From Neoaquamicrobium microcysteis (GTDB lineage: Bacteria > Pseudomonadota > Alphaproteobacteria > Rhizobiales > Rhizobiaceae), in NCBI RefSeq assembly GCF_008180155.1, contig NZ_VSZS01000062.1:186001-250000 (forward strand): a stretch of DNA of 64,000 bases, written 5' to 3'. The notes under the pieces were generated by a model. The model saw only the letters and a list, made by a program, of their open reading frames with translations. It was not told the origin of the DNA and did no database searches. The position numbers and the translations under genes are program-made. This document shows, in pieces, positions 777-22,673 of this stretch; position 1 is the first letter of the stretch; the number at the start of each line of letters is the position of its first letter.

Positions 777-1877
777 TCAGTGGGCGACGTCGCTGACGAT
801 CTGCTGTGGGTTTTCCGTCGGCGTATCGTGCAGAATGTGTTCGAGCCGTTCGGCCACAAGGGCGTCGTCGGCGCGGGGCTCGCGCTTCCACGGCCGGCGG
901 CCCTTGAGCACGCCCGATTCGTGGACGATCTCGGCGACGTATTCCTCCTGGCGGTATGCCATCACGTGGATGCCGGAGACGCCTTCGATCTCCTTCACCT
1001 CGTTGATGATGTCGATGGCAAGCTGCTTGCCTTCCTTCTTCTGGTCGGCGGCACCTTCCAGCCGTGCGATAACCGCATCCGGGATGTGGATGCCCGGCAC
1101 GTTCGACCGTATCCAGCGCGCCGTCTTGGCCGACGCGAGCGGGCCGACGCCGACGAGGATGAAGCACTTGTCGGTGAGGCCGAGGTCGCGCACACGTTTC
1201 ATGTAGTCGCGGAACATTGGCACGTCGAAACAGTACTGGCTCTGCACGAACTGCGCGCCGGCGGCGATCTTCTTTGCCAGCCGCAGCGGCCGGAACTCGA
1301 CCGGCGGCGCGAACGGGTTGATCGCCGCGCCGAGGAAGACGGCTGGCGGCGTGGTGAGCTTGCGGCCCGACAGGAACTTCTGCTCGTCGCGCATGGTGCG
1401 CACGGTTTCCAGCAGCGACATGCAGTCGAGGTCGAAGACCGGCTTCGCGCCGGGCTGGTCGCCTGCCTGCACACCGTCGCCGGTCAGGCACAGCACGTTG
1501 GCGACGCCCATGGCGGCCGCGCCCAGCACGTCGCCCTGTATGGCGATGCGGTTCCGGTCGCGGCACGAAATCTGATAGACGGGCGCATAGCCCATGCGCG
1601 TCAGCAGCGCGCAGATGCCCACCGACGACATGTGGCAGTTGGCCCCTGACGCATCGACCGCGTTGATCGCATCCACCCAGCCGTCGAAGACCTTTGCCCG
1701 CTCGTACACGTCTTCGGGATTGGCGCTGTCGGGCGGGTTCAGCTCGGCGGTGACGGCGAACTCGCCCCGGCGCAGCACGCGCTCCAGGCGGCCGCGCGAG
1801 GAGTGGCCGGGAAGGGGATCGAGCGGCAGGTCGGGGCCGTGCGGGTTCTCGTCCGGCTGTGGCGGGCGCGTCGTCAT
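777..1877 (-). CDS. metF: methylenetetrahydrofolate reductase, MetF family
   Basis: Flavoenzyme interconverting methylene-THF and methyl-THF. The 366-residue product has an ordinary MetF TIM barrel with little extension: FAVTAELNPPD near the N-terminus, LCLTGDGVQAGDQP in the middle, and GAQFVQSQYCFD, which matches the usual substrate-binding block of the family. The ATG at 1877 overlaps the stop of the upstream metV-like gene by four bases (ATGA), which fixes the start and indicates translational coupling. In acetogens a MetF next to a PF12225-type MetV forms a two-subunit reductase, and the same pairing occurs here. In this context it probably oxidises methyl-THF made by the adjacent methyltransferase; a purely biosynthetic methionine role is the alternative. 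Family is clear, direction is inference. Confidence 0.9.
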   Translation of the reverse strand: MTTRPPQPDENPHGPDLPLDPLPGHSSRGRLERVLRRGEFAVTAELNPPDSANPEDVYERAKVFDGWVDAINAVDASGANCHMSSVGICALLTRMGYAPVYQISCRDRNRIAIQGDVLGAAAMGVANVLCLTGDGVQAGDQPGAKPVFDLDCMSLLETVRTMRDEQKFLSGRKLTTPPAVFLGAAINPFAPPVEFRPLRLAKKIAAGAQFVQSQYCFDVPMFRDYMKRVRDLGLTDKCFILVGVGPLASAKTARWIRSNVPGIHIPDAVIARLEGAADQKKEGKQLAIDIINEVKEIEGVSGIHVMAYRQEEYVAEIVHESGVLKGRRPWKREPRADDALVAERLEHILHDTPTENPQQIVSDVAH

Positions 1878-2455
1878 GCGGTTTCCCGCGCCTTGTCGCG
1901 TTCGGCGGCTGCAAGTGCCGTCACGCGCAGCCACGCGGACGTTTCGCGAAGCGACTGATCGACAGGCTTCTGCACGTTGAGGATCGCGTTGCCGTGCACC
2001 ATGTTGCGCGAGCCTTCCCACGCCTTCACCCACACGCACGGCATGTCGGGTTCGACCTCGCAATTGCCGTTGGCGCGCACGCCGCCGCACGGGCCGTTGC
2101 GAAGCTGCTTGGGGCAGTTCATGGGGCAGGACATGCCGGTGGACGACAGCACGCACTGTCCGCACATGCGGCAGTCGAACATCAGGCCCTTCACCCTTCT
2201 CTCGACGAACTTCACCGGGGCTTCGGCGCGGCTGTAGCCGATGGCCTTCCACAGCGGGTGCAGCATGAGGAAGACATCGGCGAAGCGGGCGTAGAACCAT
2301 TCGAGCGCGCGCGAATGGCGCACCGACCACAGGCGCATCGTATAGCGGCGCTGGACGCGCCTTTGCGGCGACACGTCGGCAGGCTTGTAGGCGGTCTTCG
2401 GGGCGGCCTGCTTGACCAGCGTGGCCTGTGTGACGGTGTTGCCGGCTTCAGCCAT
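1874..2455 (-). CDS. MetV-like protein (methylenetetrahydrofolate reductase C-terminal domain, PF12225 type)
   Basis: This is a 193-residue free-standing Cys-rich protein. Residues 95-140 carry eight cysteines (95, 98, 101, 110, 114, 123, 132, 140) in the pattern CxxCxxC...C...C, together with PMNCPKQLRNGPCGG, the hallmark of the domain annotated as methylene-THF reductase C-terminal. In acetogens the equivalent protein MetV binds metal and partners MetF. Here it lies immediately upstream of metF with a 4-base overlap, and it overlaps the preceding small gene by 8 bases, so the three are very probably co-translated. It likely forms the second subunit that feeds electrons to or from MetF. No transmembrane segment or signal peptide is seen. 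Confidence 0.85.
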   Translation of the reverse strand: MAEAGNTVTQATLVKQAAPKTAYKPADVSPQRRVQRRYTMRLWSVRHSRALEWFYARFADVFLMLHPLWKAIGYSRAEAPVKFVERRVKGLMFDCRMCGQCVLSSTGMSCPMNCPKQLRNGPCGGVRANGNCEVEPDMPCVWVKAWEGSRNMVHGNAILNVQKPVDQSLRETSAWLRVTALAAAERDKARETA

Positions 2456-2750
2456 TTTCGAGCCCGCCGGCCTTCACCAGCGCCACCAGTCGCTCACGGG
2501 TGAAAGTCGCGTCGAGGTGGGCGGCGGCCTTGTCGGCCTCTGCCTCCAGATCGTCGGAAACCGGCACGGGGTCGGCCTTTCGCCATTCGGCAAGATAGGC
2601 GTCGGTGTCGCCGGCCCCGGTGCGCATGGCGCACATGTCTATGGCCTCGGTGAAGCGCAGCGGCAGCTCGCGCTTGGCGTTCTGCCTGCCCTTCTTCACG
2701 ATCACCTGCGCGGGGATATCGCGCCAGTAGACGACGATGAGATCCGCCAT
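2448..2750 (-). CDS. small protein resembling the 'virulence factor' family (PF13769)
   Basis: A 100-residue soluble protein beginning MADLIVVYWRDIPAQV and continuing with KRELPLRFTEAIDMCAMRTG. This matches what is usually annotated simply as 'virulence factor', a domain found next to MttB/MetV genes in alphaproteobacteria. Despite the name, nothing here suggests pathogenicity. The start is supported by a strong ribosome-binding site (GAGGAGG) before the ATG at 2750. Its stop overlaps the metV-like gene by 8 bases, so it is expressed as part of the C1 operon and may be an accessory factor for methyl-group oxidation. No catalytic motif is visible; function unknown. Confidence 0.7.
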   Translation of the reverse strand: MADLIVVYWRDIPAQVIVKKGRQNAKRELPLRFTEAIDMCAMRTGAGDTDAYLAEWRKADPVPVSDDLEAEADKAAAHLDATFTRERLVALVKAGGLENG

Positions 2751-2845
2751 GTTCGCCTGCCTCCTCACTCCGTCCCGAGCATTGCCGCAAGCGCGACAGG
2801 CCCGCTTGTTGGCGGACGACGCGCGCGCCTTCAAAAGCGACGCGG

Positions 2846-3415
2846 TCAGCGGCGAAATTCGAGGATGTCCAGTTTCGATTCGTAGTGCGGCGCGGGAAAC
2901 TCGATGTGCCACCGGTTTTCGCCGGTACGGAAGGCGTAGGCTGCCTGGTCGCTCTCAGGCCCCGAGCCGTATTGTGGCGCAGGGTCGTTGTGGATGCTGC
3001 CCGAGCCGAGATAGGTCAGCTGCGTGTCGCTGTCGGTAAAGAAGCGGCCCGTGGTGCGCTGCGATCCGGAGAGCTTCTGCAGCCGCCAGCCCGAGCCGTC
3101 GTCGGTCACCCTGCATTTGAACCACGAATAGACGACGAGATTGGCCAGCCCACCCACCTTCGTGGTGCGGCATTGCCAGTCGCCCGTCATGTCGAAGCCG
3201 TCGAACGACAGGTGCTCGGCATCCAGCGCGCCTTCCATCGTGGCGATGTCTGCGGCGCTGCCGCCCTGCCGCGCTTCGGCGACGGCTTCTTCGCGCGTGG
3301 CTTCGTATGCGTTCAGCCTGGCCTGATCCGCCTCCGTGATGATGCTGAGGATTTCCCCGGTTGCGAATGCGGGCGTGGCGAGGATAAGCGCGAGGGCGCA
3401 GGCTGCATGGCGCAT
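2846..3415 (-). CDS. secreted protein resembling DUF4893
   Basis: A 189-residue product with an N-terminal signal peptide (MRHAACALALILATPAFA, cleavage probably after AFA), hence periplasmic. The body contains GDWQCRTTKVGG, YSWFKCRV and GWRLQKLSGSQRTTG, which recall the DUF4893 family; two cysteines in these blocks could form a disulfide. The ATG at 3415 has a good GGAGA ribosome-binding site. It sits in the same orientation between the DUF1638 gene and the PF13769-like gene, with gaps of 52 and 95 bases, so it may be read through by the C1 operon or have its own promoter. No enzymatic role can be read from the sequence. Confidence 0.68.
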   Translation of the reverse strand: MRHAACALALILATPAFATGEILSIITEADQARLNAYEATREEAVAEARQGGSAADIATMEGALDAEHLSFDGFDMTGDWQCRTTKVGGLANLVVYSWFKCRVTDDGSGWRLQKLSGSQRTTGRFFTDSDTQLTYLGSGSIHNDPAPQYGSGPESDQAAYAFRTGENRWHIEFPAPHYESKLDILEFRR

Positions 3416-3467: not shown

Positions 3468-4079
3468 TCAAGATCGGGTTGCCGCGCGCGCCAGTTCGGG
3501 CTCCAGGTCGCCATAGCCGGTACGCCTTTTCTCATAGGCGAGGCCGAGCATGCGGGCGGCATCCTGCGCAACCTTGTCCAACGCCGGATCGTCCGTCTGG
3601 GCGAGGTAGACGACCTTTTCGTAATTGCCGAAGAAATCATTGATGAGTTCGGGGTGCCGGTCCAGCCCCAGCGGCTTGATGAAGAACGCATCGAACTGAC
3701 GGCACAGGAAGTCGGTCATGTAGAATGCCGTCATGTCGCCTTCCTCCACCGCCTCGAAGGCCTGGAGCCCCTGATAGAAGGCGAAGCAGTGCGGCCCTGC
3801 GATGCGCTCCACGCCATGCTTCTCGCACACGCGGTCGAGCAGCCCGCCGGTGCCGCAATCGGCGTAGCCTGCAAAGATGTTTCGGTAGCCTTCCGCGCGC
3901 GCCTTCTCGATCGCGGCATCCATCAGGGCGGGGATGCGGTCGGGGCGGTAATGAAGCTCGGCGGGAAGGCAGGTCAGTTCGAGATGATCGAGCCCCAGCC
4001 GCTCCTTCACCGCAAGCACTTCGCGCGCGATCATTCCGCAGCCGATGACCAGAACCTTTTCAGGTTCCGCGCGTTGCAT
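3468..4079 (-). CDS. DUF1638 domain-containing protein
   Basis: A 203-residue cytoplasmic protein starting MQRAEPEKVLVIGCGMIAREV. Conserved-looking blocks are IGCGMIARE near residue 14, GYADCGTGGLLD, GPHCFAFYQG and DFLCRQFDAFF, giving several Cys/His residues that could bind a metal or corrin. DUF1638 genes recur beside corrinoid methyltransferase genes in archaea and bacteria, and here the next upstream gene on this strand is the corrinoid protein. The ATG at 4079 is preferred over a GTG at 4088 because AGGTGA lies five bases upstream of the ATG. The molecular function is not known; a helper role in corrinoid methyl transfer is a guess from context. Confidence 0.78.
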   Translation of the reverse strand: MQRAEPEKVLVIGCGMIAREVLAVKERLGLDHLELTCLPAELHYRPDRIPALMDAAIEKARAEGYRNIFAGYADCGTGGLLDRVCEKHGVERIAGPHCFAFYQGLQAFEAVEEGDMTAFYMTDFLCRQFDAFFIKPLGLDRHPELINDFFGNYEKVVYLAQTDDPALDKVAQDAARMLGLAYEKRRTGYGDLEPELARAATRS

Positions 4080-4136
4080 AGTCGTCACCTGATCCCGCGC
4101 CGAGCCGGCGCGTTCTTACCGATGCGGAGAGAAGCA

Positions 4137-4324: not shown

Positions 4325-5023
<699 letters not shown>

Positions 5024-5289
5024 GCTGGGCTCCTGAAAGGCCATGGCGCGGGCGTGGCCTGCCCGCATCGTTCGCCAATTCATAGTCTGCGCCGCACGCC
5101 TTTGCTTAGCTGATTTGCGACGCGCCGCGATAGGAAAGCGACTGCAAAGGCTTGCGGTCGAGCCTGCATCGTTTTCTGTCTATTTTGCGACACGGGCTGG
5201 CGCTGGCTGGCCGCTTTTGCAAGGGTGCTCGGCTACGATCCCGCAAAATGCCGCGCGAGGCGGTGAAATCAGGGTTCAGGGAAGCGATC

Positions 5290-6864
5290 ATGGAAGACAA
5301 TCTGGCTGTCGAGCAGGAGCCCAGCGGCGGACGCAGGGGGCGCGGCGACAGGGGCGGTGCTGCGGCGCGCCGCGCGGCGCGCACGGGCGGCGGGGCAGGG
5401 CCCCAGCTCACCTACATCAAGCGCCAGATTCCGCTCTACGAGGTGCTGAACGAGGAGGGAATCGCCCTCATCGAGGCCAATGCCGACACGGTGCTGGAGG
5501 AGATCGGCATCGAGTTCCGCGACGACGCGGAGGCGCTGGCGCTGTGGAAGGATGCGGGTGCCGACGTGAAGGGCGAACGGGTGCATTTTCCCAGGGGGCT
5601 GCCGCGCTCGCTGCTGAAGACCGCGCCTTCGGTGTTCACCCAGCATGCGCGCAACCCGGAGCGTTCGGTGCAGATCGGCGGCGACGCGACCGTCTTCGCC
5701 CCGGTCTACGGGCCGCCCTTCGTACGCGATCTGGAAGGCGACCGCCGCTATGCGACGATCGAGGATTTCCGCAATTTCGTGAAGCTCGCCTACATGGCCC
5801 CGTCGATCCACCATTCGGGCGGCACGGTGTGCGAGCCGGTGGACGTGCCGGTCAACAAGCGCCATCTCGACATGGTGCTGGCGCACATGACGCTTTCGGA
5901 CAAGCCGTTCATGGGCTCGGTGACCGCGCCCGAGCGGGCGGAAGACACCGTTGCGATGGCCAGGATCCTGTTCGGCGACGAGTTCGTCGATCAGAACACG
6001 GTCATCATCAACCTCATCAACGCCAACTCGCCGATGGTGTTCGACGAGACGATGCTGGGCGCGGCCAAGGTCTATGCGCGCGCCAACCAGGCGACGATCA
6101 TAACGCCGTTCATCCTTGCCGGCGCCATGAGCCCTGTCACCGTCGCCGGCACGCTCACGCAGGTTCTGGCGGAGGTGCTGGCAGGTGCGGCCTTCACGCA
6201 GCTCGTGCGGCCCGGCGCGCCTGTGCTGTTCGGCACCTTCGCATCCTCCATCTCGATGCAGTCGGGCGCGCCGACATTCGGGACGCCGGAGCCGTCGCTC
6301 GTGTCCTACGGTGCCGCGCAACTCGCCCGCCGTCTCGGCCTGCCTTTCCGCACCGGCGGATCGCTGTGCGCCTCCAAGGTTCCCGACGCGCAGGCTGCCT
6401 ATGAGAGCGCCAACACGCTCAACTCGACGCTGCTTGCCGGCACCAACTTCGTGCTGCATTCGGCCGGCTGGCTCGAGGGCGGCCTCGCTTCCTGCTACGA
6501 GAAGTTCATGATGGACGTCGACCAGCTCGGCATGGCGCAGAAGCTGGCGGCCGGCGTCGACCTCTCCGAGAACGGGCAGGCGATGGACGCGATCCGCGAG
6601 GTCGGGCCCGGCAGCCACTATCTGGGCTGCTCGCACACGCAGGCCAACTTCCAGACGGCGTTCTACCGGTCCTCGATCGCCGACAACAATTCGTTCGAGC
6701 AGTGGCAGGCCGAAGGCGAAAAGACCGCGCCGCAACGCGCCAACGAACTCGCCCGGCGCTGGCTGGACAGCTACGAAGCGCCGCCTCTCGATCCTGGCAT
6801 CCGCGACGGGCTCAACGACTTCGTCTCCCGCAAGAAGGAGTCGATGCCCGACGCCTTCACGTGA
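5290..6864 (+). CDS. MttB-family methyltransferase without pyrrolysine (paralog 1)
   Basis: A 524-residue member of the trimethylamine methyltransferase family. Its frame has no internal TAG, so it belongs to the large non-pyrrolysine group that includes glycine betaine (MtgB), proline betaine and carnitine demethylases. It would move a methyl group from a quaternary amine to the corrinoid protein encoded divergently 266 bases away. Residues 12-38 form an Arg/Gly/Ala-rich, probably disordered tail before the barrel begins (QLTYIKRQIPLYEVLNEEG). Other family blocks include HSGGTVCEP, ILAGAMSPVTVAGTL and AGWLEGGLASCYEKF. The ATG at 5290 follows a GGGAAG site; in-frame starts upstream exist but lack one. 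The substrate cannot be read from sequence. Confidence 0.88.
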   Translation: MEDNLAVEQEPSGGRRGRGDRGGAAARRAARTGGGAGPQLTYIKRQIPLYEVLNEEGIALIEANADTVLEEIGIEFRDDAEALALWKDAGADVKGERVHFPRGLPRSLLKTAPSVFTQHARNPERSVQIGGDATVFAPVYGPPFVRDLEGDRRYATIEDFRNFVKLAYMAPSIHHSGGTVCEPVDVPVNKRHLDMVLAHMTLSDKPFMGSVTAPERAEDTVAMARILFGDEFVDQNTVIINLINANSPMVFDETMLGAAKVYARANQATIITPFILAGAMSPVTVAGTLTQVLAEVLAGAAFTQLVRPGAPVLFGTFASSISMQSGAPTFGTPEPSLVSYGAAQLARRLGLPFRTGGSLCASKVPDAQAAYESANTLNSTLLAGTNFVLHSAGWLEGGLASCYEKFMMDVDQLGMAQKLAAGVDLSENGQAMDAIREVGPGSHYLGCSHTQANFQTAFYRSSIADNNSFEQWQAEGEKTAPQRANELARRWLDSYEAPPLDPGIRDGLNDFVSRKKESMPDAFT

Positions 6865-6956
6865 AAGGAGCCCGTTACAGGCCGGGCTAAAGTGGCCGAT
6901 ATCATCCACAAGGAAGTCTGGCGCAGCGCAATGCGTGGGCCGGACAGGTAAGCCTG

Positions 6957-7628
6957 ATGCTTGAGGAGATCGCAGCGTGCCTTCGGGAAAGCGGTCTCAT
7001 CCTGCGCGGCGGGCTGCATTTCGCGCGCGGCGAGGAGCGGCCATCCGGTCCCGGCGGCGAGCCGGCAGGCTCGGTCGTGCTCGTCGGCAATGCCGGGGCG
7101 GATTACTGGCGCCACTTCAACTGCTGGCGGGCTAGGCAGCCTGCCGATCTTGCCGACCCGCTCGACTGCTGGTCACGAGAGGTGATCGGCGCGGTGGCTC
7201 AAAAAGCCGGCGCGCGGGTGCTGATGCCGAACGACCGGCCGTTTGCGCCTTTCCAGCAATGGGTAATGCGGGCGGAAGGGCTGAAGTCGTCGCCGCTGGG
7301 GCTGCTGATCCATCCGCGCTACGGCCTGTGGCATGCCTTTCGAGGGGCGCTGCTGTTCGACGAGGAAATCGCACTGCCAAATGTTGAGAGATCGAATCAT
7401 CCCTGCGCGCTATGTGACGGAAAACCCTGCCTGAAAGCCTGCCCGGTGGGCGCTCATTCTGAGGCTGGTTTCGCCTATGCCGCCTGCGTCTCGCATGTGC
7501 GCGGGGCGGATGGGCAAACGTGTCGCGAAGGCGGCTGCATCGCGCGCAACGCGTGCCCGGTCGGCGAACGGTATCGCTACCCCGCACCGGTTCAGGCGTT
7601 TCACCAGAAGGCGTTTGCCGGGTTCTGA
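6957..7628 (+). CDS. MMACHC-like cobalamin-processing domain fused to two [4Fe-4S] motifs
   Basis: A 223-residue protein probably co-transcribed with mttB1 (92-base gap). The C-terminal third has two iron-sulfur ligand sets: C150-x2-C153-x4-C158-x3-C162-P and C177...C189-x4-C194-x5-C200-P. The N-terminal part contains DPLD at 67-70 and IHPRYGLWHAFRGALL at 118-133. The latter closely resembles the IHPRFGGWFAIRGVVLL segment of human MMACHC (CblC), the cobalamin dealkylase/reductase; the Pro-rich spacing around it also agrees. Related B12 plus iron-sulfur architecture occurs in QueG and reductive dehalogenases. The likely role is electron delivery to, or reactivation of, the oxidised corrinoid cofactor for the methyltransferases. 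ATG 6957 has an AGGTAAG site. Usually annotated only as ferredoxin; the MMACHC link is from recalled sequence, not a search. Confidence 0.72.
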   Translation: MLEEIAACLRESGLILRGGLHFARGEERPSGPGGEPAGSVVLVGNAGADYWRHFNCWRARQPADLADPLDCWSREVIGAVAQKAGARVLMPNDRPFAPFQQWVMRAEGLKSSPLGLLIHPRYGLWHAFRGALLFDEEIALPNVERSNHPCALCDGKPCLKACPVGAHSEAGFAYAACVSHVRGADGQTCREGGCIARNACPVGERYRYPAPVQAFHQKAFAGF

Positions 7629-7638
7629 TTGCTTCCTG

Positions 7639-8655
7639 TCAGGCGCGCGCGCGGCGACGTTCGCGGCGGCCTTCGCCCTCGGCTGCGCCACTTTGCGCCG
7701 CCTGCTTGTTGCGCAGGGGGCCGATACGGGCAACAACCTCTTCGACGCTGGGGCGTTCCGCGCGCGTATGTGCGTCGAGCGCCTTGCGCATGGCGGCCAG
7801 ATGCTCGAACGACGTGCCGCAGCACCCGCCAACGATGCGTGCGCCGCCGTCCACCGCCAGCCGCACATAGTCGGCCATCAGTTCTGGCGTGCCGGAATAG
7901 TGGATTTCCGTGCCGCGAAATTCCGGGATGCCGCAATTGCCCTTGACGATGATGGTCGCGTCCGGCCTTGCCGCGCTCATGTCGAGCAGCGAAGCCAGGA
8001 TGTCCGACGCGCCGACGCCGCAGTTCGCGCCGACGCCGACCGGCGCTTCCGCCAGCCCGTCGGTCACGCCGTGGATGTCCTTGGGCGCAAGGCCCATCAT
8101 GGTGCGGCCGGCCGTGTCGAACGAGCCGGTATAGGTGTAGGGCAGGCCGACCCTGATGGCCGCTTCCGCGGCTGCGCGGATTTCGTCCACGGCCGACATC
8201 GTCTCGATCCACGCCACCTGCGCGCCGCCGGCCTTGAGGCCCTCGATCTGTTCCACGAAGGCCTCAACGGCCTCCTCGTAGGTCAGCGCGCCCAGCGGTT
8301 GCAGAAGCTCGCCCGTCGGCCCGACGGAGCCCGCGACGACGACCTTGCGGCCGGCCTTGTCTGCGACGGCGACGGCGATCTCGGCGGCAAGGCGGTTCAG
8401 CTCGTGCACCCGGTCCTGCGCGTGGTGCAGCTTGAGCCGGTGGCGCGTGCCGCCGAAGGAATTGGTCAGGATGATGTCGGCGCCGGCATCGACGAAGCCC
8501 TGATGAAGGGCGGCGATCTTTTCCGGCGCGGTCTCGTTCCACAGTTCCGGCGCGTCACCCGACTCGAGCCCCATCGCGAACAGGTTGGTGCCGGTAGCGC
8601 CATCGGCCAGCAGAACGCCCTTTTCGGCCAGCAGCGCCTCGATCGGATTTGTCAT
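7639..8655 (-). CDS. bmt: betaine-homocysteine S-methyltransferase
   Basis: Zinc-dependent methyltransferase transferring a methyl group from glycine betaine (or a similar donor) to homocysteine, giving dimethylglycine and methionine. The 338-residue product has the homocysteine-binding LLADGATGTNLF near the N-terminus and the three zinc cysteines: C212 in GANCGVG, and C278 and C279 in VGGCCGT. The length matches the bacterial Bmt family, and the last 25 residues are a basic tail. It ends 11 bases from the convergent MMACHC-like gene and lies downstream of an XRE regulator on the same strand. An AT-rich palindrome sits in its leader. It offers a B12-independent way to demethylate betaine alongside the MttB route. 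A serine- or methylmethionine-type donor remains possible. Confidence 0.88.
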   Translation of the reverse strand: MTNPIEALLAEKGVLLADGATGTNLFAMGLESGDAPELWNETAPEKIAALHQGFVDAGADIILTNSFGGTRHRLKLHHAQDRVHELNRLAAEIAVAVADKAGRKVVVAGSVGPTGELLQPLGALTYEEAVEAFVEQIEGLKAGGAQVAWIETMSAVDEIRAAAEAAIRVGLPYTYTGSFDTAGRTMMGLAPKDIHGVTDGLAEAPVGVGANCGVGASDILASLLDMSAARPDATIIVKGNCGIPEFRGTEIHYSGTPELMADYVRLAVDGGARIVGGCCGTSFEHLAAMRKALDAHTRAERPSVEEVVARIGPLRNKQAAQSGAAEGEGRRERRRARA

Positions 8656-11866: not shown

Positions 11867-14440
11867 TCACCCGCGCATCTTCTCGCCTGATGGATCGAAT
11901 GGCGGCTCGACATTGATGCGCGCCGCTCGGCGATGGCCGAGGATTTCGATCTCGAAAAGGCCGTCGCTTTCGTCATCCGCGAGTGCGGCGGGCACGTAGC
12001 CCTGCGCCATCGACTTGCCGACATAGTGGGCGTAACCGCCTGACGTGACCCAGCCCACGACCGACCATTCGCCGTCGTGGATGCCGCGGATCGAAGACGC
12101 GCCGTGGTCTGCCTGCGACTGGCGCGTTTCCTTGCCCTCTGCATCGAAGCGCGGCGCGCCATAGCCGTGCGGCTTCTCGATCGTGCCGTGGTCCGTGCCG
12201 TTCACTTTCGCCCAGATCGGCTCGTCGCCCATGACGTCGGCGTCGGCCGCATCGACGATGAGCGAGACACGGCGCAGCTTCGGGCCGTCGGCATGTTCTT
12301 TCGCGGCGGCCTCGCGCCCGATGAAGTCGTTCTTCTCCAGCTTGATGAAGCGGTCCATTCCGCCTTCGAACGGGCCGTAGATCGGCCGCAGCTCACGGAA
12401 CCATGTCGGGAAGTTCTTTTCCAGACGCATCGCCAGCAGCGCGCGCATGCCGAAATCGACGATGCCGAATTCCTCGCCCGCCTCATTGATCGCGGCATAG
12501 ACAAGGCGCTGGTAGGCCGGCTGCATCCAGATTTCATAGCCGAGGTCGCCCGTATAGGTGATGCGGTTGACCATGCAGGGCGCACCGCCGACCGCCATCT
12601 CGCGGAAATCCATGAAGCGGAAAGCCTTGGAGGACACGTCCACATCCACCAGCTTCTGCAGCAGTGCCTGCGAATTCGGGCCGGCGATGGAGAGGCCCAC
12701 CAGCGTCTGGTCGAACCGATGGATGCGCACGGAGCCGTCGGCGGGCAGGTGCTTCTCGAACCAGCGCATGTGGTATTTCTGCGCGGCAGACGAACCCCAG
12801 ATCATGAAGCGCTCGTCGCCGGTTTTTGCGATGGTGAAGTCGCCGATCAGCTTGCCGAACTCGTTGAGCATCGGCGTTAGCACGATGCGGCCCTTCTTCG
12901 GCATCCGGTTGGTCATCAGGCGGTTGAGGAAGTCCTCCGCGCCCGCGCCCGAGACCTCGTATTTCGCGAAGTTGGCAATCTCGGTGACGCCAACCGACTC
13001 GCGCGTCTTGCGCACCTCGTTGCCGACATGCTCGAAATCGTTGGAGCGGTGGAACGAGACGATGTCCTTCGGCTCGCTGCCCTTGGGCGCGAACCACAGC
13101 GGCGTTTCGAGACCCCATGAATCGCCCATCACCGCATTCTGCGCGACCATGGTGTCGTAGAGCGGCGTGGTCTGTGCGGGGCGGGCTGCCGGCAGCTCCT
13201 CGTTGGGGAAGCGGATGGAGAAGCGGCGCGAGTAATTCTCGCGCACCTTGGCGTTGGTGTAGCGCAGGCTGGCCCATTCGCCGAAACGGGCCACGTCCAT
13301 GCCCCACACGTCGAAGCCCGGATCGCCGTTCACCATCCAGTTGGACAGCGCCAGTCCCACGCCGCCGCCCTGGCTGAAGCCTGCCATGACCGCGCAGGCG
13401 CACCAGAAGTTGGTGAGACCCTGCACCGGCCCGACGAGCGGGTTGCCGTCGGGCGCAAACGTGAAGGGGCCGTTGATGATCTGCTTGATGCCGGCCTTCT
13501 CGATGCCGGGGAAGTGGCGGAAACCCACCTCCAGTGACGGCGCGATGCGGTCGAGGTCGGGCGCCAGCAGTTCATGGCCGAAATCCCAGGGCGTATTGAC
13601 CGGCGACCACGGCTTGCAAGCCTTCTCGTAAGTGCCCAGCAGCACGCCGTTGCGCTCCTGCCGCGTGTAGATTTCACCCTTGAAGTCGAGCACGCCCACC
13701 ATCTCGCGGCCGGTGCGGGCGTTGAACTCCTCCACTTCCGGCATCGGCTCGGTCAGCAGGTACATGTGCTCCATGGCCAGCAGCGGCAGCTCGACGCCGA
13801 CCATGCGGCCGACCTCACGGGCCCACAGCCCGCCGCAGTTCACCACGTGCTCGGCCTTCACCGTGCCCTGTTCGGTGATGACGTTCCACGTGCCGTCGGG
13901 CTCCTGCGTCAGCTCGCGCACCGGGTTGCGCAGCACGATCTCCGCGCCCAGCTTGCGCGCCGCCTTGGCGTAGGCGTGCGTGGTGCCGGAAGGATCGAGA
14001 TGGCCCTCCACGGGGTCCCACATCGCGCCGACGAAGTGGCTTTCGTCCATCAGCGGGAACATGGCCTTCGCCTCGGAAGGCGTGATGAGTTCCGTATCCA
14101 TGCCGAGATAGCGGCCCTTGGCGTGGGCGAGGCGCAGGAAGTCCATACGTTCCGGCGTGTCGGCAAGCATCACGCCGCCGGTAAGGTGCAGCGAACAGGA
14201 CTGGCCCGAAATTTCCTCCAGCTCCTTGTAGAGCTGGACGGTGTATGCCTGCAGCTTCGCGACGTTGGGGTCGCCGTTGAGCGTATGAAAGCCGCCGGCC
14301 GCATGCCAGGACGATCCCGAGGTCAGCTCGGACCGCTCGATCAGCATCACGTCCGTCCAGCCGGCGCGGGCGAGGTGATAAAGCACCGAACAGCCGACGA
14401 CGCCGCCGCCGATCACAACCGCTTTGACATGAGATTTCAT
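11867..14440 (-). CDS. dimethylglycine dehydrogenase-like flavoprotein (FAD oxidoreductase plus GcvT-type folate domain)
   Basis: An 857-residue two-part enzyme. Residues 5-380 are a DAO-type FAD oxidoreductase with the dinucleotide loop VVIGGGVVGC and SSWHAAGG, whose His46 is the covalent FAD site of dimethylglycine and sarcosine dehydrogenases. Residues about 430-840 are an aminomethyltransferase-like THF domain (YEVSGAGAEDFLNRL, TYTGDLGYEIW). The family removes a methyl group from dimethylglycine or sarcosine oxidatively and captures it as methylene-THF. It lies 30 bases downstream of mttB2 and is almost surely co-transcribed. That order suggests MttB2 makes dimethylglycine from betaine and this enzyme takes the next methyl group. 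Sarcosine or another N-methyl amine is an alternative substrate. Confidence 0.87.
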   Translation of the reverse strand: MKSHVKAVVIGGGVVGCSVLYHLARAGWTDVMLIERSELTSGSSWHAAGGFHTLNGDPNVAKLQAYTVQLYKELEEISGQSCSLHLTGGVMLADTPERMDFLRLAHAKGRYLGMDTELITPSEAKAMFPLMDESHFVGAMWDPVEGHLDPSGTTHAYAKAARKLGAEIVLRNPVRELTQEPDGTWNVITEQGTVKAEHVVNCGGLWAREVGRMVGVELPLLAMEHMYLLTEPMPEVEEFNARTGREMVGVLDFKGEIYTRQERNGVLLGTYEKACKPWSPVNTPWDFGHELLAPDLDRIAPSLEVGFRHFPGIEKAGIKQIINGPFTFAPDGNPLVGPVQGLTNFWCACAVMAGFSQGGGVGLALSNWMVNGDPGFDVWGMDVARFGEWASLRYTNAKVRENYSRRFSIRFPNEELPAARPAQTTPLYDTMVAQNAVMGDSWGLETPLWFAPKGSEPKDIVSFHRSNDFEHVGNEVRKTRESVGVTEIANFAKYEVSGAGAEDFLNRLMTNRMPKKGRIVLTPMLNEFGKLIGDFTIAKTGDERFMIWGSSAAQKYHMRWFEKHLPADGSVRIHRFDQTLVGLSIAGPNSQALLQKLVDVDVSSKAFRFMDFREMAVGGAPCMVNRITYTGDLGYEIWMQPAYQRLVYAAINEAGEEFGIVDFGMRALLAMRLEKNFPTWFRELRPIYGPFEGGMDRFIKLEKNDFIGREAAAKEHADGPKLRRVSLIVDAADADVMGDEPIWAKVNGTDHGTIEKPHGYGAPRFDAEGKETRQSQADHGASSIRGIHDGEWSVVGWVTSGGYAHYVGKSMAQGYVPAALADDESDGLFEIEILGHRRAARINVEPPFDPSGEKMRG

Positions 14441-14470: not shown

Positions 14471-16048
14471 TCAGAAATCCGTCGGCGCGCCGCCTTCGGC
14501 GATGCGGCGGTTGACGAAACCGTCGAGTTCTTCGCGGATGGCGGGGTCCATGGCGGGCGGCTCGTAGCTTGCCAGCCGCTCCTTCCACACGCGGTTGGCC
14601 TTCTCGATCGCGGTGGGGGAGCCAGCCTCCGACCAGCTCTCGAAATTGCGCCAGTCGGACAGGACCGGGGAATAGAACGCCGTCTTGTAGCGGTTCTGGG
14701 TGTGGGGCGTGCCGAAGAAGTGCCCGCCCGGCCCGACATCGCGGATCGCATCGACCGCCAGCGCGTCTTCCGACAGGTCCAGCGGGGTCAGGAACTCCCC
14801 CACCATCTGAAGAAGGTCGATGTCGAGGATGGTTTTTTCGAACGAACACCGCAGCCCGCCTTCCAGCCAGCCGGCGGCGTGCATCATCATGTTGCCGCCG
14901 CCCTGTATCGCGCCCCACAGCGAGAACACGCTTTCATAGGCAGCCTGCGCGTCGACCGTGTTGGCGGCGCAGGTGTTCGAGGTGCGGTAGGGAAGGGCGT
15001 AGCGGCGCGCGAGCTGGCCGCCGACGAGCTGCGCCTTCATGTATTCCGGCGTGCCGAAGGCCGGGGCGCCCGATTTCATGTCGACGTTGGAGGTGAAGCC
15101 GCCATAGGCCACCGGCGCGCCCTTGCGCACCATCTGCGCAAACGCGATGCCCGACAGGGCCTCGGCGTTCTGCTGCACCAGCGCGCCGGCGATGGTGACA
15201 GGCGCCATCGCGCCCGACAGGGTGAACGGCGTGACCACCACCACCTGGCCCGCCGAGGCCATCTGGATGATGCCCTCCATCATCGGAATGTCGAGCTTCA
15301 GCGGCGAGTTGGTGTTGATGATGGTGAAGACGGACGGCTCTGCCAGAAGTTGCTCGCGTGAGATGCCGCGCGCCAGCCGCGCGATCTCGATGCCATCGAC
15401 GTTGCGTTCCATGCCCAGCGAATAGATGTGGAACACCTTGTCGGTCAGCACCGCCAGGTCGCGGACGCATTCCAGATGCCGGATCGAGGGGTGGATGTCG
15501 ATCGGCTCCACCGGGTAGCCGCCGGTGATGTTGATGATGTTGTGCATCTGCGCGAGCTTGAGGAAGCTGCGATAGTCTTCCTGGTTGCCCGGCCTGCGCC
15601 CACGGTCGATATCCGAGCAGTTGGGCGCCGAAGCCATCATCGAGATGATGAGGTTGTCGCCGCCGAAGACGACGTTGTGCGCCGGGTTACGCGCATGCAG
15701 CGTGAACTGCGACGGCGCATGGCCCACCAGTTCCAGGACCATGTCTGGGTCGAAGCGCACGCGTTCGGTGCCTGCCTGCACGTCCGCGCCGTGCTCTTTC
15801 ATGATCCGGCGCGCGCCCTCGTGCAGCACGTCGACGCCGATTTCCTCGAGCACGCGCAGCGACGCCAGATGGATGGATTCCAACTCGTCGTCCGAGACGA
15901 TCTTCGTCGGCGCGAAGGGGATTTTCAGCTGGCGAAAGGCCGGCTGCTCGAACGCGGCGGCGCCACCGGCGCGCTTGCCCGCGCGCCCGCCGCGCCTTGC
16001 CCGTTCGGTGCCTGCGAGCGCTTCGCCCGGCAGCGTCATGTCGGTCAT
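14471..16048 (-). CDS. MttB-family methyltransferase without pyrrolysine (paralog 2)
   Basis: A 525-residue non-pyrrolysine MttB homolog, clearly a paralog of the gene at 5290-6864. Shared blocks include YKTAFYSPVLSDW versus FQTAFYRSSIADN, AGWLEGGLRCSFEK versus AGWLEGGLASCYEK, and DAIRDVGPGGHFFGTPHTQ versus the matching DAIREVGPGSHYLGCSHTQ. It too has an Arg/Gly/Ala-rich N-terminal tail (residues 16-32) before the barrel. It has no in-frame TAG. The first gene of a leftward pair with the dimethylglycine dehydrogenase-like gene, it is the better candidate for a glycine betaine demethylase. It would use the corrinoid protein and methyl-THF system encoded about 10 kb to the left, as no second corrinoid gene is visible. 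Confidence 0.88.
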   Translation of the reverse strand: MTDMTLPGEALAGTERARRGGRAGKRAGGAAAFEQPAFRQLKIPFAPTKIVSDDELESIHLASLRVLEEIGVDVLHEGARRIMKEHGADVQAGTERVRFDPDMVLELVGHAPSQFTLHARNPAHNVVFGGDNLIISMMASAPNCSDIDRGRRPGNQEDYRSFLKLAQMHNIINITGGYPVEPIDIHPSIRHLECVRDLAVLTDKVFHIYSLGMERNVDGIEIARLARGISREQLLAEPSVFTIINTNSPLKLDIPMMEGIIQMASAGQVVVVTPFTLSGAMAPVTIAGALVQQNAEALSGIAFAQMVRKGAPVAYGGFTSNVDMKSGAPAFGTPEYMKAQLVGGQLARRYALPYRTSNTCAANTVDAQAAYESVFSLWGAIQGGGNMMMHAAGWLEGGLRCSFEKTILDIDLLQMVGEFLTPLDLSEDALAVDAIRDVGPGGHFFGTPHTQNRYKTAFYSPVLSDWRNFESWSEAGSPTAIEKANRVWKERLASYEPPAMDPAIREELDGFVNRRIAEGGAPTDF

Positions 16049-21075: not shown

Positions 21076-21191
21076 GACATCCTCCCTGCGCATTCCGTAG
21101 ACTTGACCGGCAATCTAGACCATTGCAGGGGCTGTGCAACGTTCGGGCCCGCAAAGGCGCTGTGCGTGAATACGATAACGGAGCGTGCGAA

Positions 21192-22673
21192 ATGTCGAGC
21201 CCTGCCAAAGCCCGCGCGATCATGCTCCAGGGCACCGGCTCCGACGTGGGCAAGACGGTGCTGGTGGCCGGGCTGTGCCGCGTGGCGCGCAATCGCGGGC
21301 TGTCCGTTCGCCCCTTCAAGCCGCAGAACATGTCGAACAACGCGGCCGTCGCCGACATTCCCGGCGAGGCCATGGGCGGCGAGATCGGCCGCGCGCAATG
21401 GCTGCAGGCGCTTGCCTGCGGCGTGCCACCGACGGTCGATATGAATCCCGTGCTGCTCAAGCCGCAGAGCGATATCGGCGCGCAGGTGGTCGTGCAGGGC
21501 AGGATGCGCGGGCAGGCGGAGGCGCGCGACTACCAGACGCTGAAGGCGACGCTCATGGATGCCGTGATGGAGTCGTGGCAGCGGCTGGGGCAGGGCGCCG
21601 AGCTCGTCATTGTGGAGGGCGCGGGCTCGCCTGCCGAGATCAACCTGCGCTCGCGCGACATCGCCAATATGGGTTTCGCCACGCGCGCCGACGTGCCGGT
21701 GGTGCTGGTCGGCGACATAGATCGCGGAGGGGTGATCGCATCTGTCGCTGGCACGCACCTCATCCTGCCGGAAGAGGACCGGCGGATGATCGTCGGCTAT
21801 CTCATAAACAAGTTTCGGGGCGATGTGAGCCTCTTCGACGAGGGGCTCGATGCCATCACCCTGTTCACGGGCTGGCGATCCTTCGGCGTCGTGCCTTGGC
21901 TGCGGGAGGCCGCTCTGCTGCCTTCCGAAGACTCCGTGGTTCTGGAGCGTGCGGTTAGGGGCGAGGGGCCGGCCTGCAAGGTGGCGGTGCCGATGCTGTC
22001 CCGGATCGCCAATTTCGACGACCTCGACCCGCTCAAGGCCGAATCCGAGGTTGAGGTTACTTTCGTCCCGCCCGGTCGAGCTATTGGGGATGATACCGCA
22101 ATCGTGGTCATTCCGGGCTCGAAAGCCACCATTTCCGACCTCGCGATGCTGCGGGAAAATGGTTGGGACCGCGACATTAAGGCCGTGCGCCGGCGCGGCG
22201 GTCGCGTCGTCGGGCTGTGCGGCGGCTACCAGATGTTGGGGCGCACGGTCTCTGATCCGCATGGGATAGAGGGTGGCGGCACGGTCGAGGGGCTTGGCCT
22301 GCTGGATGTCGAGACCGTGCTCGAACCGGAAAAGACGGTGCGCAACGTGGCCGGGTTCTCCAACATGTATGAAGAAGAACTATCCGGCTACGAAATCCAC
22401 CTCGGACGAACGACCGGTCCGGACACTTTGCGGCCGCCAGTCACCATCGATGGCGTGCCCGACGGCGCCGCCTCTCGCGACGGGCGGGTGTGGGGAACAT
22501 ACCTCCACGGCGTGTTTGCGGCAGACGGCTTTCGCCGCAGGTTCCTCGCCGAGCTGGGCGTTCGGGGGCAGGGCACGAACTACCGCGAAAGCATCGAAAC
22601 CGCGCTGGACGCAATCGCCGCGCATCTGGAAAAGCACATTGATATCAACGCCCTGCTGGCTGCCGCGCGCTGA
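21192..22673 (+). CDS. cobQ: cobyric acid synthase
   Basis: ATP- and glutamine-dependent amidase that amidates four side chains of adenosylcobyrinic acid a,c-diamide in cobalamin synthesis. The 493-residue length is standard. Residues 10-230 form the dethiobiotin-synthetase-like ATPase (MLQGTGSDVGKT, FKPQNMSNNA, EGAGSPAEINL). Residues 290-480 form the triad glutaminase domain, with the active Cys in VVGLCGGYQMLG and the His in GTYLHGVF. It stands alone among non-cobalamin genes, but the window has a corrinoid protein and two corrinoid methyltransferases, so demand for B12 is clear. No cobalamin riboswitch was found in the short upstream region. Confidence 0.93.
   Translation: MSSPAKARAIMLQGTGSDVGKTVLVAGLCRVARNRGLSVRPFKPQNMSNNAAVADIPGEAMGGEIGRAQWLQALACGVPPTVDMNPVLLKPQSDIGAQVVVQGRMRGQAEARDYQTLKATLMDAVMESWQRLGQGAELVIVEGAGSPAEINLRSRDIANMGFATRADVPVVLVGDIDRGGVIASVAGTHLILPEEDRRMIVGYLINKFRGDVSLFDEGLDAITLFTGWRSFGVVPWLREAALLPSEDSVVLERAVRGEGPACKVAVPMLSRIANFDDLDPLKAESEVEVTFVPPGRAIGDDTAIVVIPGSKATISDLAMLRENGWDRDIKAVRRRGGRVVGLCGGYQMLGRTVSDPHGIEGGGTVEGLGLLDVETVLEPEKTVRNVAGFSNMYEEELSGYEIHLGRTTGPDTLRPPVTIDGVPDGAASRDGRVWGTYLHGVFAADGFRRRFLAELGVRGQGTNYRESIETALDAIAAHLEKHIDINALLAAAR

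What the first reader, a model, noticed from the sequence alone, without database searches (positions are those of the whole stretch)
6957..7628. MMACHC-like cobalamin domain joined to two [4Fe-4S] motifs beside a corrinoid methyltransferase
Seen: IHPRYGLWHAFRGALL at residues 118-133, a DPLD block at 67-70, and eight Cys in two [4Fe-4S]-like sets (150/153/158/162 and 177/189/194/200). Known: human MMACHC (CblC), as I recall it, has IHPRFGGWFAIRGVVLL and DPVD at equivalent places, and it reduces or dealkylates cobalamins. Known corrinoid reductive activators (RamA/DUF4445) look quite different. Inference: this is a bacterial CblC-ferredoxin fusion that reactivates Co(II) corrinoid, or strips alkyl groups from cobalamin, for the MttB system next door. 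It would be a new type of corrinoid activator.
Basis: partly seen in the sequence, partly recalled or inferred. Interest (0 to 1): 0.8.

Follow-up and report, generated by a model that had tools for sequence, protein, structure and literature searches.

The report
Bacterial CblC-like vitamin B12 protein with iron-sulfur
A small, unnamed bacterial protein looks like the human vitamin B12 processing protein CblC joined to an iron-sulfur electron carrier, and sits among genes that use B12 to strip methyl groups from betaines; it probably prepares or repairs B12, but this has not been tested.

Summary
The 223-aa ORF at 6957-7628 belongs to a conserved family with eight ferredoxin-type Cys and an HPRYGLWHAYRG block (81 sequences). 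Its AlphaFold2 model is confident (pLDDT 96); Foldseek's best PDB match is human MMACHC (E 1.7e-6), then QueG, then reductive dehalogenases. No Pfam or NCBIfam model reaches its cut-off.

It lies in the mtg cluster (glycine-betaine demethylation / split methionine synthase). Mtg genes are near in 62 of 80 fetched loci; in 297 genomes of the order it co-occurs with MttB and RamA (odds ratios about 50).

Best reading: an iron-sulfur CblC analogue that reduces cobalamin or strips its upper ligand and hands it over, here serving MtgC; the chemistry is untested. It would link MMACHC, recently called eukaryote-only, with QueG and RdhA. New variant of a known kind.

The parts
6957..7628 (+). CblC-ferredoxin protein (P0001): residues about 1-145 MMACHC/QueG-like fold; about 146-223 dicluster [4Fe-4S] ferredoxin part (inferred)
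7308..7355 (+). residues 118-133, IHPRYGLWHAFRGALL block; R129 and, just before the block, G115 align with human MMACHC R161 and G147
   Evidence: effects of G147D and R161Q in passages
7404..7556 (+). residues 150-200 with the eight conserved Cys (two [4Fe-4S] clusters inferred)
5152..6864 (+). MtgB/MttB-family methyltransferase, directly upstream on the same strand, 92 bases between the ORFs (start codon uncertain)
   Evidence: PF06253 E 2.5e-236; positions
4325..5083 (-). MtgC-like corrinoid (B12-binding) protein, divergent from mtgB
   Evidence: PF02310 and PF02607; best NCBIfam model is MtgC NF047996, 210.8 bits, under its cut-off of 370
3468..4088 (-). DUF1638 protein; in Phaeobacter a DUF1638 gene is needed for methionine synthesis
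   Evidence: PF07796; PMC5764234 passages
2448..2912 (-). PF13769 'virulence factor' protein, regular neighbour in mtg clusters
1874..2455 (-). methylenetetrahydrofolate reductase C-terminal (DUF5981)
   Evidence: PF12225
777..2330 (-). ORF holding a methylenetetrahydrofolate reductase (MetF2-like); the domain begins at ORF residue 182, so the true start lies inside, near 1780-1880
   Evidence: PF02219
1..859 (-). part of the MtgD-like gene (methyltetrahydrofolate:corrinoid methyltransferase); the ORF runs 250 bases out of the window, and the RamA/DUF4445 gene follows outside
   Evidence: ORF map; RamA PF14574 on the same contig; MtgD named by its place and by the same gene order with product names, no family search was run on it
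7639..8655 (-). MtgE-like / betaine--homocysteine S-methyltransferase family protein
   Evidence: PF02574, NF005718 565 bits over cut-off 338

Best explanation
P0001 is a soluble, iron-sulfur version of CblC. Its N-terminal MMACHC/QueG-like domain binds cobalamin base-off (inferred from fold). Its dicluster ferredoxin part passes single electrons from a low-potential donor to the cobalt (inferred from QueG/RdhA). This reduces Co(III)/Co(II) forms and removes an upper ligand such as hydroxo, cyano, glutathionyl or alkyl, and the product is handed to new or damaged MtgC, the corrinoid protein of the neighbouring betaine demethylase / split methionine synthase (inferred). RamA in the same cluster does the routine ATP-driven Co(II) to Co(I) reactivation (from the literature). 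Shown here: ORF, conservation, predicted fold, linkage and co-occurrence. Not shown: clusters, cobalamin binding, any reaction, donor or acceptor.
For: Fold: pLDDT 96.3; Foldseek best E 1.7e-6, prob 1.00, human MMACHC; QueG 8.5e-6; C. elegans CblC 8.4e-4; PceA 5.7e-3. Sequence: MMACHC is a sub-threshold Pfam match in 40 of 55 members and QueG a sub-threshold NCBIfam match in 28 of 55; hhalign with QueG is collinear over residues 36-220, E 1e-6. R129 (81 of 81) and G115 (79 of 81) align with MMACHC R161 and G147; G147D could not bind hydroxo- or cyanocobalamin, R161Q bound cyanocobalamin poorly and had less decyanase activity (passages). Context: mtg genes in 62 of 80 loci, mtgB ending within 300 bases upstream in 53 of 80. 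MttB in 74 of 83 carriers versus 29 of 214 others (p 2e-35), RamA in 76 of 83 versus 39 of 214 (p 7e-33); by genus MttB 38 of 42 versus 14 of 81. Linked copies form one supported clade plus one pair. 36 of 37 chosen carriers have a B12-binding_2 protein. A relative ends a cobalamin-biosynthesis gene run.
Against: No biochemistry. PF16690 cut-off not met (18.2 of 27 bits). A profile search of all PDB sequences gave nothing under E 0.02: best were a hydrogenlyase ferredoxin subunit 0.027, QueG 0.036, MMACHC 0.12. NapG-type ferredoxin models match more members (31 of 55) than QueG does. The N-domain alone has no significant profile match to QueG. Foldseek TM-scores are 0.44-0.57 with rmsd 6.4-9.5 angstrom over the first 30 matches, so it is a match of fold, not of detail. 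25 of 98 MttB+RamA genomes lack the gene. B12-binding_2 is common anyway: 9 of 14 control genomes have it, and one of 37 carriers (G355) does not. The cob-operon relative is out of frame in its 3' part. Many rhizobia make B12 themselves (recalled), where decyanation is not obviously needed. Kinship between genomes is not removed from the co-occurrence tests.
Confidence: 0.5

Rival explanations
1. Direct reductive activator: it passes electrons to Co(II) on MtgC, or feeds electrons to RamA, as part of the reactivation machinery itself.
For: Downstream of ramA on the same strand in the four Aromatoleum/Azoarcus loci (0.2 kb in L052, about 0.9 kb in L051, L053, L054) and directly before ramA in L097; co-occurs with RamA; two [4Fe-4S] clusters suit electron transfer.
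Against: The Phaeobacter RamA-like protein already has a ferredoxin domain (passage); 25 of 98 MttB+RamA genomes lack the gene, and in the 11 such loci I looked at I saw no common replacement gene (by eye). No RamA in 9 of 13 f81 carriers and 3 other carriers; also in 6 order genomes, which were picked because they lack it. A pure electron carrier would not need an MMACHC-type domain.
Confidence: 0.25
2. A class III B12 enzyme in its own right (QueG/RdhA type) that acts on a small molecule rather than on B12 itself.
For: Order of domains as in QueG and RdhA (PMC4646009 passages). Varied genomic settings outside mtg clusters.
Against: Only 223 aa with nothing after the ferredoxin part, so no further substrate-binding domain as in QueG or RdhA; the closest fold is the B12-processing protein.
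Confidence: 0.12
3. Redox or B12 sensor, or cofactor chaperone, without catalysis. Human MMADHC shows that the nitroreductase-type fold can be used for protein contact alone (PMC4705923 passage).
For: Small size; regulator genes in the fetched stretch of some loci (XRE in 13 and LysR in 13 of 80).
Against: No DNA-binding or signalling domain found; HPRYGxWHxxR kept in the main branch.
Confidence: 0.08
4. A QueG paralogue or tRNA-modification accessory.
For: Weak QueG model matches in 28 of 55 members.
Against: The genome has a full QueG elsewhere (E 8.5e-138); 12.5 bits against the QueG cut-off of 200; no HEAT domain; methyl-transfer context.
Confidence: 0.02

Closest known systems
MMACHC / CblC (Pfam PF16690), human and C. 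elegans
   Same: Best structural match; HPR(F/Y)GxW...RG block with G147 and R161 equivalents
   Different: Bacterial; a ferredoxin part follows where the human protein has its four-helix cap (aa 185-234, passage; placement is my inference); below the Pfam cut-off; 14-19% identity in the structural alignments
QueG epoxyqueuosine reductase (TIGR00276)
   Same: Same order of cobalamin domain and dicluster ferredoxin; collinear profile alignment; structural match
   Different: No C-terminal HEAT domain; 12.5 bits against a cut-off of 200; the genome has its own QueG
Reductive dehalogenases (PceA, NpRdhA)
   Same: Weaker structural matches, E 2e-3 to 4e-2 over 169-307 alignment columns; shared redox-chain layout
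   Different: Much smaller; no dehalogenase family among the 12 Pfam families that 55 members match at E <= 1
RamA / RACo corrinoid activators (PF14574, DUF4445)
   Same: Accompanies corrinoid methyltransferases
   Different: No PF14574 match in P0001; a RamA is present in the same cluster
mtgBCDE cluster (PMC12478193) and split methionine synthase of Phaeobacter (PMC5764234)
   Same: The locus has the same kinds of gene: MtgB, MtgC, MtgD, MtgE, MetF2, DUF1638, RamA
   Different: Neither paper names this gene in the parts that I read

Membership tests
MMACHC (PF16690) | Score above the curated family cut-off | tested here: not met
   18.2 bits against 27; 40 of 55 members match at E <= 1, best E 0.00059
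MMACHC (PF16690) | MMACHC/nitroreductase-type fold | tested here: met
   20 of the first 30 Foldseek matches are CblC proteins, the first ten all human MMACHC, prob 1.00; predicted model only
MMACHC (PF16690) | Residues equivalent to G147 and R161 | tested here: met
   G115 in 79 of 81, R129 in 81 of 81; mapping, taking the chain index of 3sby as residue number
MMACHC (PF16690) | Base-off cobalamin binding, decyanation and dealkylation | not testable with these tools
   needs protein
QueG (TIGR00276) | Score above the curated cut-off | tested here: not met
   12.5 bits against 200
QueG (TIGR00276) | Cobalamin domain followed by dicluster ferredoxin | tested here: met
   hhalign collinear over residues 36-220, prob 91, E 1e-6, with 8 of 20 QueG sequences; eight Cys; N-domain alone not significant
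QueG (TIGR00276) | C-terminal HEAT-repeat domain | tested here: not met
   the protein ends at residue 223, 23 residues after the last Cys
Reductive dehalogenase | Dehalogenase family profile match | tested here: not met
   none among the 12 Pfam families matched by 55 members at E <= 1
Reductive dehalogenase | Corrinoid domain plus two [4Fe-4S] fold | tested here: inconclusive
   Foldseek E 2e-3 to 4e-2
RamA / RACo activator | RACo C-terminal ASKHA domain (PF14574) | tested here: not met
   no match in P0001
mtg cluster gene (by neighbourhood) | Always present with the mtg cluster | tested here: not met
   25 of 98 MttB+RamA genomes lack it; 11 of these 25 loci inspected

The most novel reading that the evidence does not exclude
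CblC is not confined to eukaryotes: proteobacteria have an iron-sulfur CblC, a minimal class III B12 module (corrinoid domain plus dicluster ferredoxin, nothing else) that processes cobalamin and delivers it to methyltransferase corrinoid proteins, and it links MMACHC with QueG and the reductive dehalogenases in one superfamily.
Probability: 0.42. Interest if true: 0.8.

Novelty: new variant of a known kind. Interest (0 to 1): 0.63.

Why it matters
How bacteria strip, reduce and hand over cobalamin before use is little known. A 2026 paper still calls MMACHC a eukaryote-only partner of methionine synthase (PMC13376404, passage). A small soluble family with a confident predicted fold, tied to betaine demethylation and split methionine synthase in rhizobia and other proteobacteria, makes the question directly testable, and could show how a B12-processing protein and the B12 iron-sulfur enzymes are related.

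Tried and rejected
Idea that the protein replaces RamA: rejected, RamA is in the same cluster and 76 of 83 carriers in the order sample have RamA. A stand-in gene in mtg clusters without it: 11 of 25 such loci looked at, by eye, none seen in common. QueG identity: rejected. DUF1638 as a CblD (MMADHC)-like loader: its model (pLDDT 88) has no PDB match at E <= 0.001, so left open. In-frame TGA in RamA-like genes of four genomes, first noted as a possible selenoprotein: it falls at the end of the protein, like an ordinary stop. Rfam scan of the window: nothing at gathering score. Foldseek against viral models: no match at E <= 0.001. Promoter/terminator scan of 5000-7800: no promoter-like site, five terminator-like sites, none in the gap before this gene on its strand.

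Rows dropped: genome G143 (weak partial match, 37% over 78 residues, in a 457-aa frame), and four weak or partial second matches (G168, G282, G068, G041). thus counts 83 of 84 matched genomes.

Mistakes mended: one search read 11 of 29 unnamed-genome loci on the wrong strand, so its counts are not used; one search replaces it. One search held wrong-strand QueG rows and is discarded; one search keeps 8 of 20 QueG rows, chosen by a Cys pattern, which may favour the ferredoxin half. One search uses a truncated list of MttB matches, so its 33 of 83 within 10 kb is a lower bound.

Not in print: the searches in the open PMC library listed no paper whose title or abstract start is about a bacterial CblC or CblC-ferredoxin protein; passages of two listed papers with the word CblC showed none either. 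Subscription papers and preprints were not covered. Papers: PMC12478193, parts 1-3 of 6 and a term search; PMC5764234, PMC4646009, PMC2923755, PMC13376404, PMC11439496, PMC4876134 and PMC4705923, passages only; all others, search listings only.

Full report
WHAT IS THERE. The search of its own genome finds one copy. Known-family libraries do not name it: the only Pfam match at E <= 1 is MMACHC, below cut-off (18.2 of 27 bits), and NCBIfam gives five weak matches, ferredoxin types and QueG among them. A phmmer search of PDB sequences returns 7 distinct sequences at E <= 10, the first six all MMACHC at E 0.11-0.16, over the HPRYG block. A profile of 55 members does no better: best E 0.027 for a hydrogenlyase subunit, 0.036 for QueG, 0.12 for MMACHC. 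Public annotations seen are 'ferredoxin' in S. meliloti and 'hypothetical protein' in Paracoccus and Methylibium.

A REAL FAMILY. A scan of named genome contigs found 91 relatives and kept the best 80. In P0001 plus these 80, H119, P120, G123, W125, H126 and R129 are the same in all, and the eight Cys in 79-81 of 81. In a 24-row alignment over all branches, P98, G123, R129, the eight Cys, P163, R197, P201 and H216 are invariant. 59 of 398 genomes sampled from the phylum match at E <= 1e-8, and 17 of 78 in the order of f81 at E <= 1e-10.

FOLD. AlphaFold2 on 55 aligned sequences gave mean pLDDT 96.3 and pTM 0.90. Against 350,542 PDB chains, Foldseek lists human MMACHC in the first ten places (best 3sby, E 1.7e-6, prob 1.00); of the first 30 matches 20 are human or worm CblC and 10 are QueG (best 8.5e-6); dehalogenases follow from 2.3e-3. 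TM-scores over the query are 0.44-0.57 and rmsd 6.4-9.5 angstrom for these 30, so the match is of fold rather than of detail. hhalign against QueG (8 of 20 sequences kept) is collinear over residues 36-220 (prob 91, E 1e-6); the broader alignment matches from residue 66 (prob 96, E 4.8e-9); the N-domain alone is not significant. QueG and RdhA bind base-off cobalamin in a nitroreductase-type module next to two [4Fe-4S] clusters, and the same paper says that the human B12-processing enzyme binds cobalamin alike but lacks the ferredoxin domain (PMC4646009 passages). P0001 has that combination and little else. R129 and G115 fall on MMACHC R161 and G147, where mutations impair or abolish cobalamin handling (PMC2923755 passages). 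In the human protein a four-helix cap (aa 185-234) follows this region (PMC4705923 passage); by the alignment the ferredoxin part of P0001 begins at about the same point (inference).

NEIGHBOURHOOD. On the contig the order is RamA, MtgD, MetF2-like, DUF5981, PF13769, DUF1638, MtgC (all -), then MtgB and P0001 (+), then MtgE (-) (the MtgD name rests on gene order and). This is the kind of gene set known for the aerobic glycine-betaine demethylase and split methionine synthase (PMC12478193, PMC5764234). In 62 of 80 loci at least one of MtgB, C, D, E, RamA or DUF1638 lies in the fetched stretch: MtgB 57, MtgC 59, DUF1638 54, MtgD 45, MtgE 41, RamA 37. Three arrangements recur: mtgB ending within 300 bases upstream (53 of 80, mostly rhizobia, also Paracoccus), downstream of mtgC-mtgD-ramA on one strand (four Aromatoleum/Azoarcus loci, 0.2-0.9 kb after ramA), and between mtgC plus a URO-D-fold methyltransferase and ramA (L097; URO-D; L092 is cut before the ramA side). 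The other 18 loci, three of them under 5 kb and several cut short on one side, show none of these genes; in two (L106, L110) a hydantoinase/oxoprolinase-type gene lies directly before. The 80 loci are the closest relatives, so they lean towards rhizobia. On a quick tree of 74 rows the mtg-linked copies form one clade (41 labelled rows, one unlabelled; SH-aLRT 99) plus the L092/L097 pair; Aromatoleum/Azoarcus and Paracoccus copies lie within that clade beside rhizobial ones, so the gene seems to travel with the cluster.

CO-OCCURRENCE. In 297 genomes of the order 83 carry the gene (84 matched, G143 dropped). MttB is in 74 of 83 carriers and 29 of 214 others; RamA in 76 of 83 and 39 of 214. By genus MttB is in 38 of 42 carrier genera and 14 of 81 others, RamA in 39 of 42 and 21 of 81. 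Kinship is not removed by either test, and some genomes are incomplete. Physical linkage in this sample is lower: 34 of 83 lie within 10 kb of a listed MttB or 15 kb of a RamA gene.

RESULTS AGAINST THE 'ACTIVATOR' READING. 25 of 98 genomes with both MttB and RamA lack the gene. In 11 of these 25 I looked at the mtg locus: it holds MtgB, MtgC, MtgD and DUF1638 in 11 of 11, and a RamA gene in 10 of 11 (in the eleventh, G012). In 37 chosen carrier genomes RamA is present in 13 of 13 f60, 4 of 13 f81, 2 of 2 other class members (G303, G543) and 0 of 9 others; six of these nine had been picked because they lack it. 36 of 37 have a B12-binding_2 protein, but so do 9 of 14 control genomes. The six order genomes without MttB and RamA have it in frames of 1047-1728 aa, the size of MetH (inference). 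In the five f60 loci the gene lies beside what reads as argB and a histidine phosphatase; in the f81 loci near groEL or other genes (names by eye, no search). A relative on a Methylibium petroleiphilum plasmid ends a run of cobO, cbiB, cobQ, cobT and cobS genes, but its 3' part is out of frame. The window's genome also has a MetH-type activation domain in a 1266-aa frame.

MECHANISM. What the branches share is methyl-corrinoid proteins, not MttB or RamA as such. The fold says B12 handling, the clusters say one-electron reduction, and the neighbours say that the client in this clade is MtgC. I therefore favour reduction or ligand removal and delivery of cobalamin (0.5) over direct reactivation (0.25). 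Human CblC works with CblD, which loads methionine synthase through a Co-S bond (PMC13376404 passages). DUF1638, with four Cys (17, 40, 78, 101) invariant in 29 sequences, could be tested as such a loader, but its model has no informative structural match.

NOVELTY. No family model reached its cut-off for P0001 (the 55 members gave only weak best E-values) and no paper listed appears to describe it. It combines two known parts, so I file it as a new variant of a known kind (class III B12 iron-sulfur proteins / CblC).

Noticed in passing
L165:7872-8492 (Methylibium petroleiphilum PM1 plasmid, MPE_RS22065): A divergent relative, out of frame in its 3' part, stands at the end of a cobalamin-biosynthesis gene run (cobO, cbiB, cobQ, cobT, cobS; two other genes between).
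   Followed up: partly
L106:7980-9995 and L110:7971-10001; also L051:2533-4572: Hydantoinase/oxoprolinase-type gene directly before the CblC-ferredoxin gene in two gammaproteobacterial loci, and 5.4 kb away in Aromatoleum.
   Followed up: partly
L092 and L097: MtgC, a URO-D-fold methyltransferase, the CblC-ferredoxin gene and (L097) RamA in a row: possibly a further corrinoid methyltransferase system.
   Followed up: no
L147-L151 (f60 genomes): Recurring place of the family beside an acetylglutamate-kinase-like (argB) gene and a histidine-phosphatase-like gene (names by eye).
   Followed up: no
window 3468-4088: DUF1638 has four invariant Cys over 29 sequences and no confident PDB fold match.
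   Followed up: partly
window 11867-14440 and 14471-16048: A second MttB-like ORF (by similarity) next to an FAD-dependent oxidoreductase/GcvT gene, perhaps a further demethylation step.
   Followed up: no
window 21123-22673: CobB/CobQ-like amidotransferase gene, about 13.5 kb from the CblC-ferredoxin gene.
   Followed up: no
L177-L180: RamA-like matches with an in-frame TGA: the TGA lies at the end of the protein, like an ordinary stop.
   Followed up: yes
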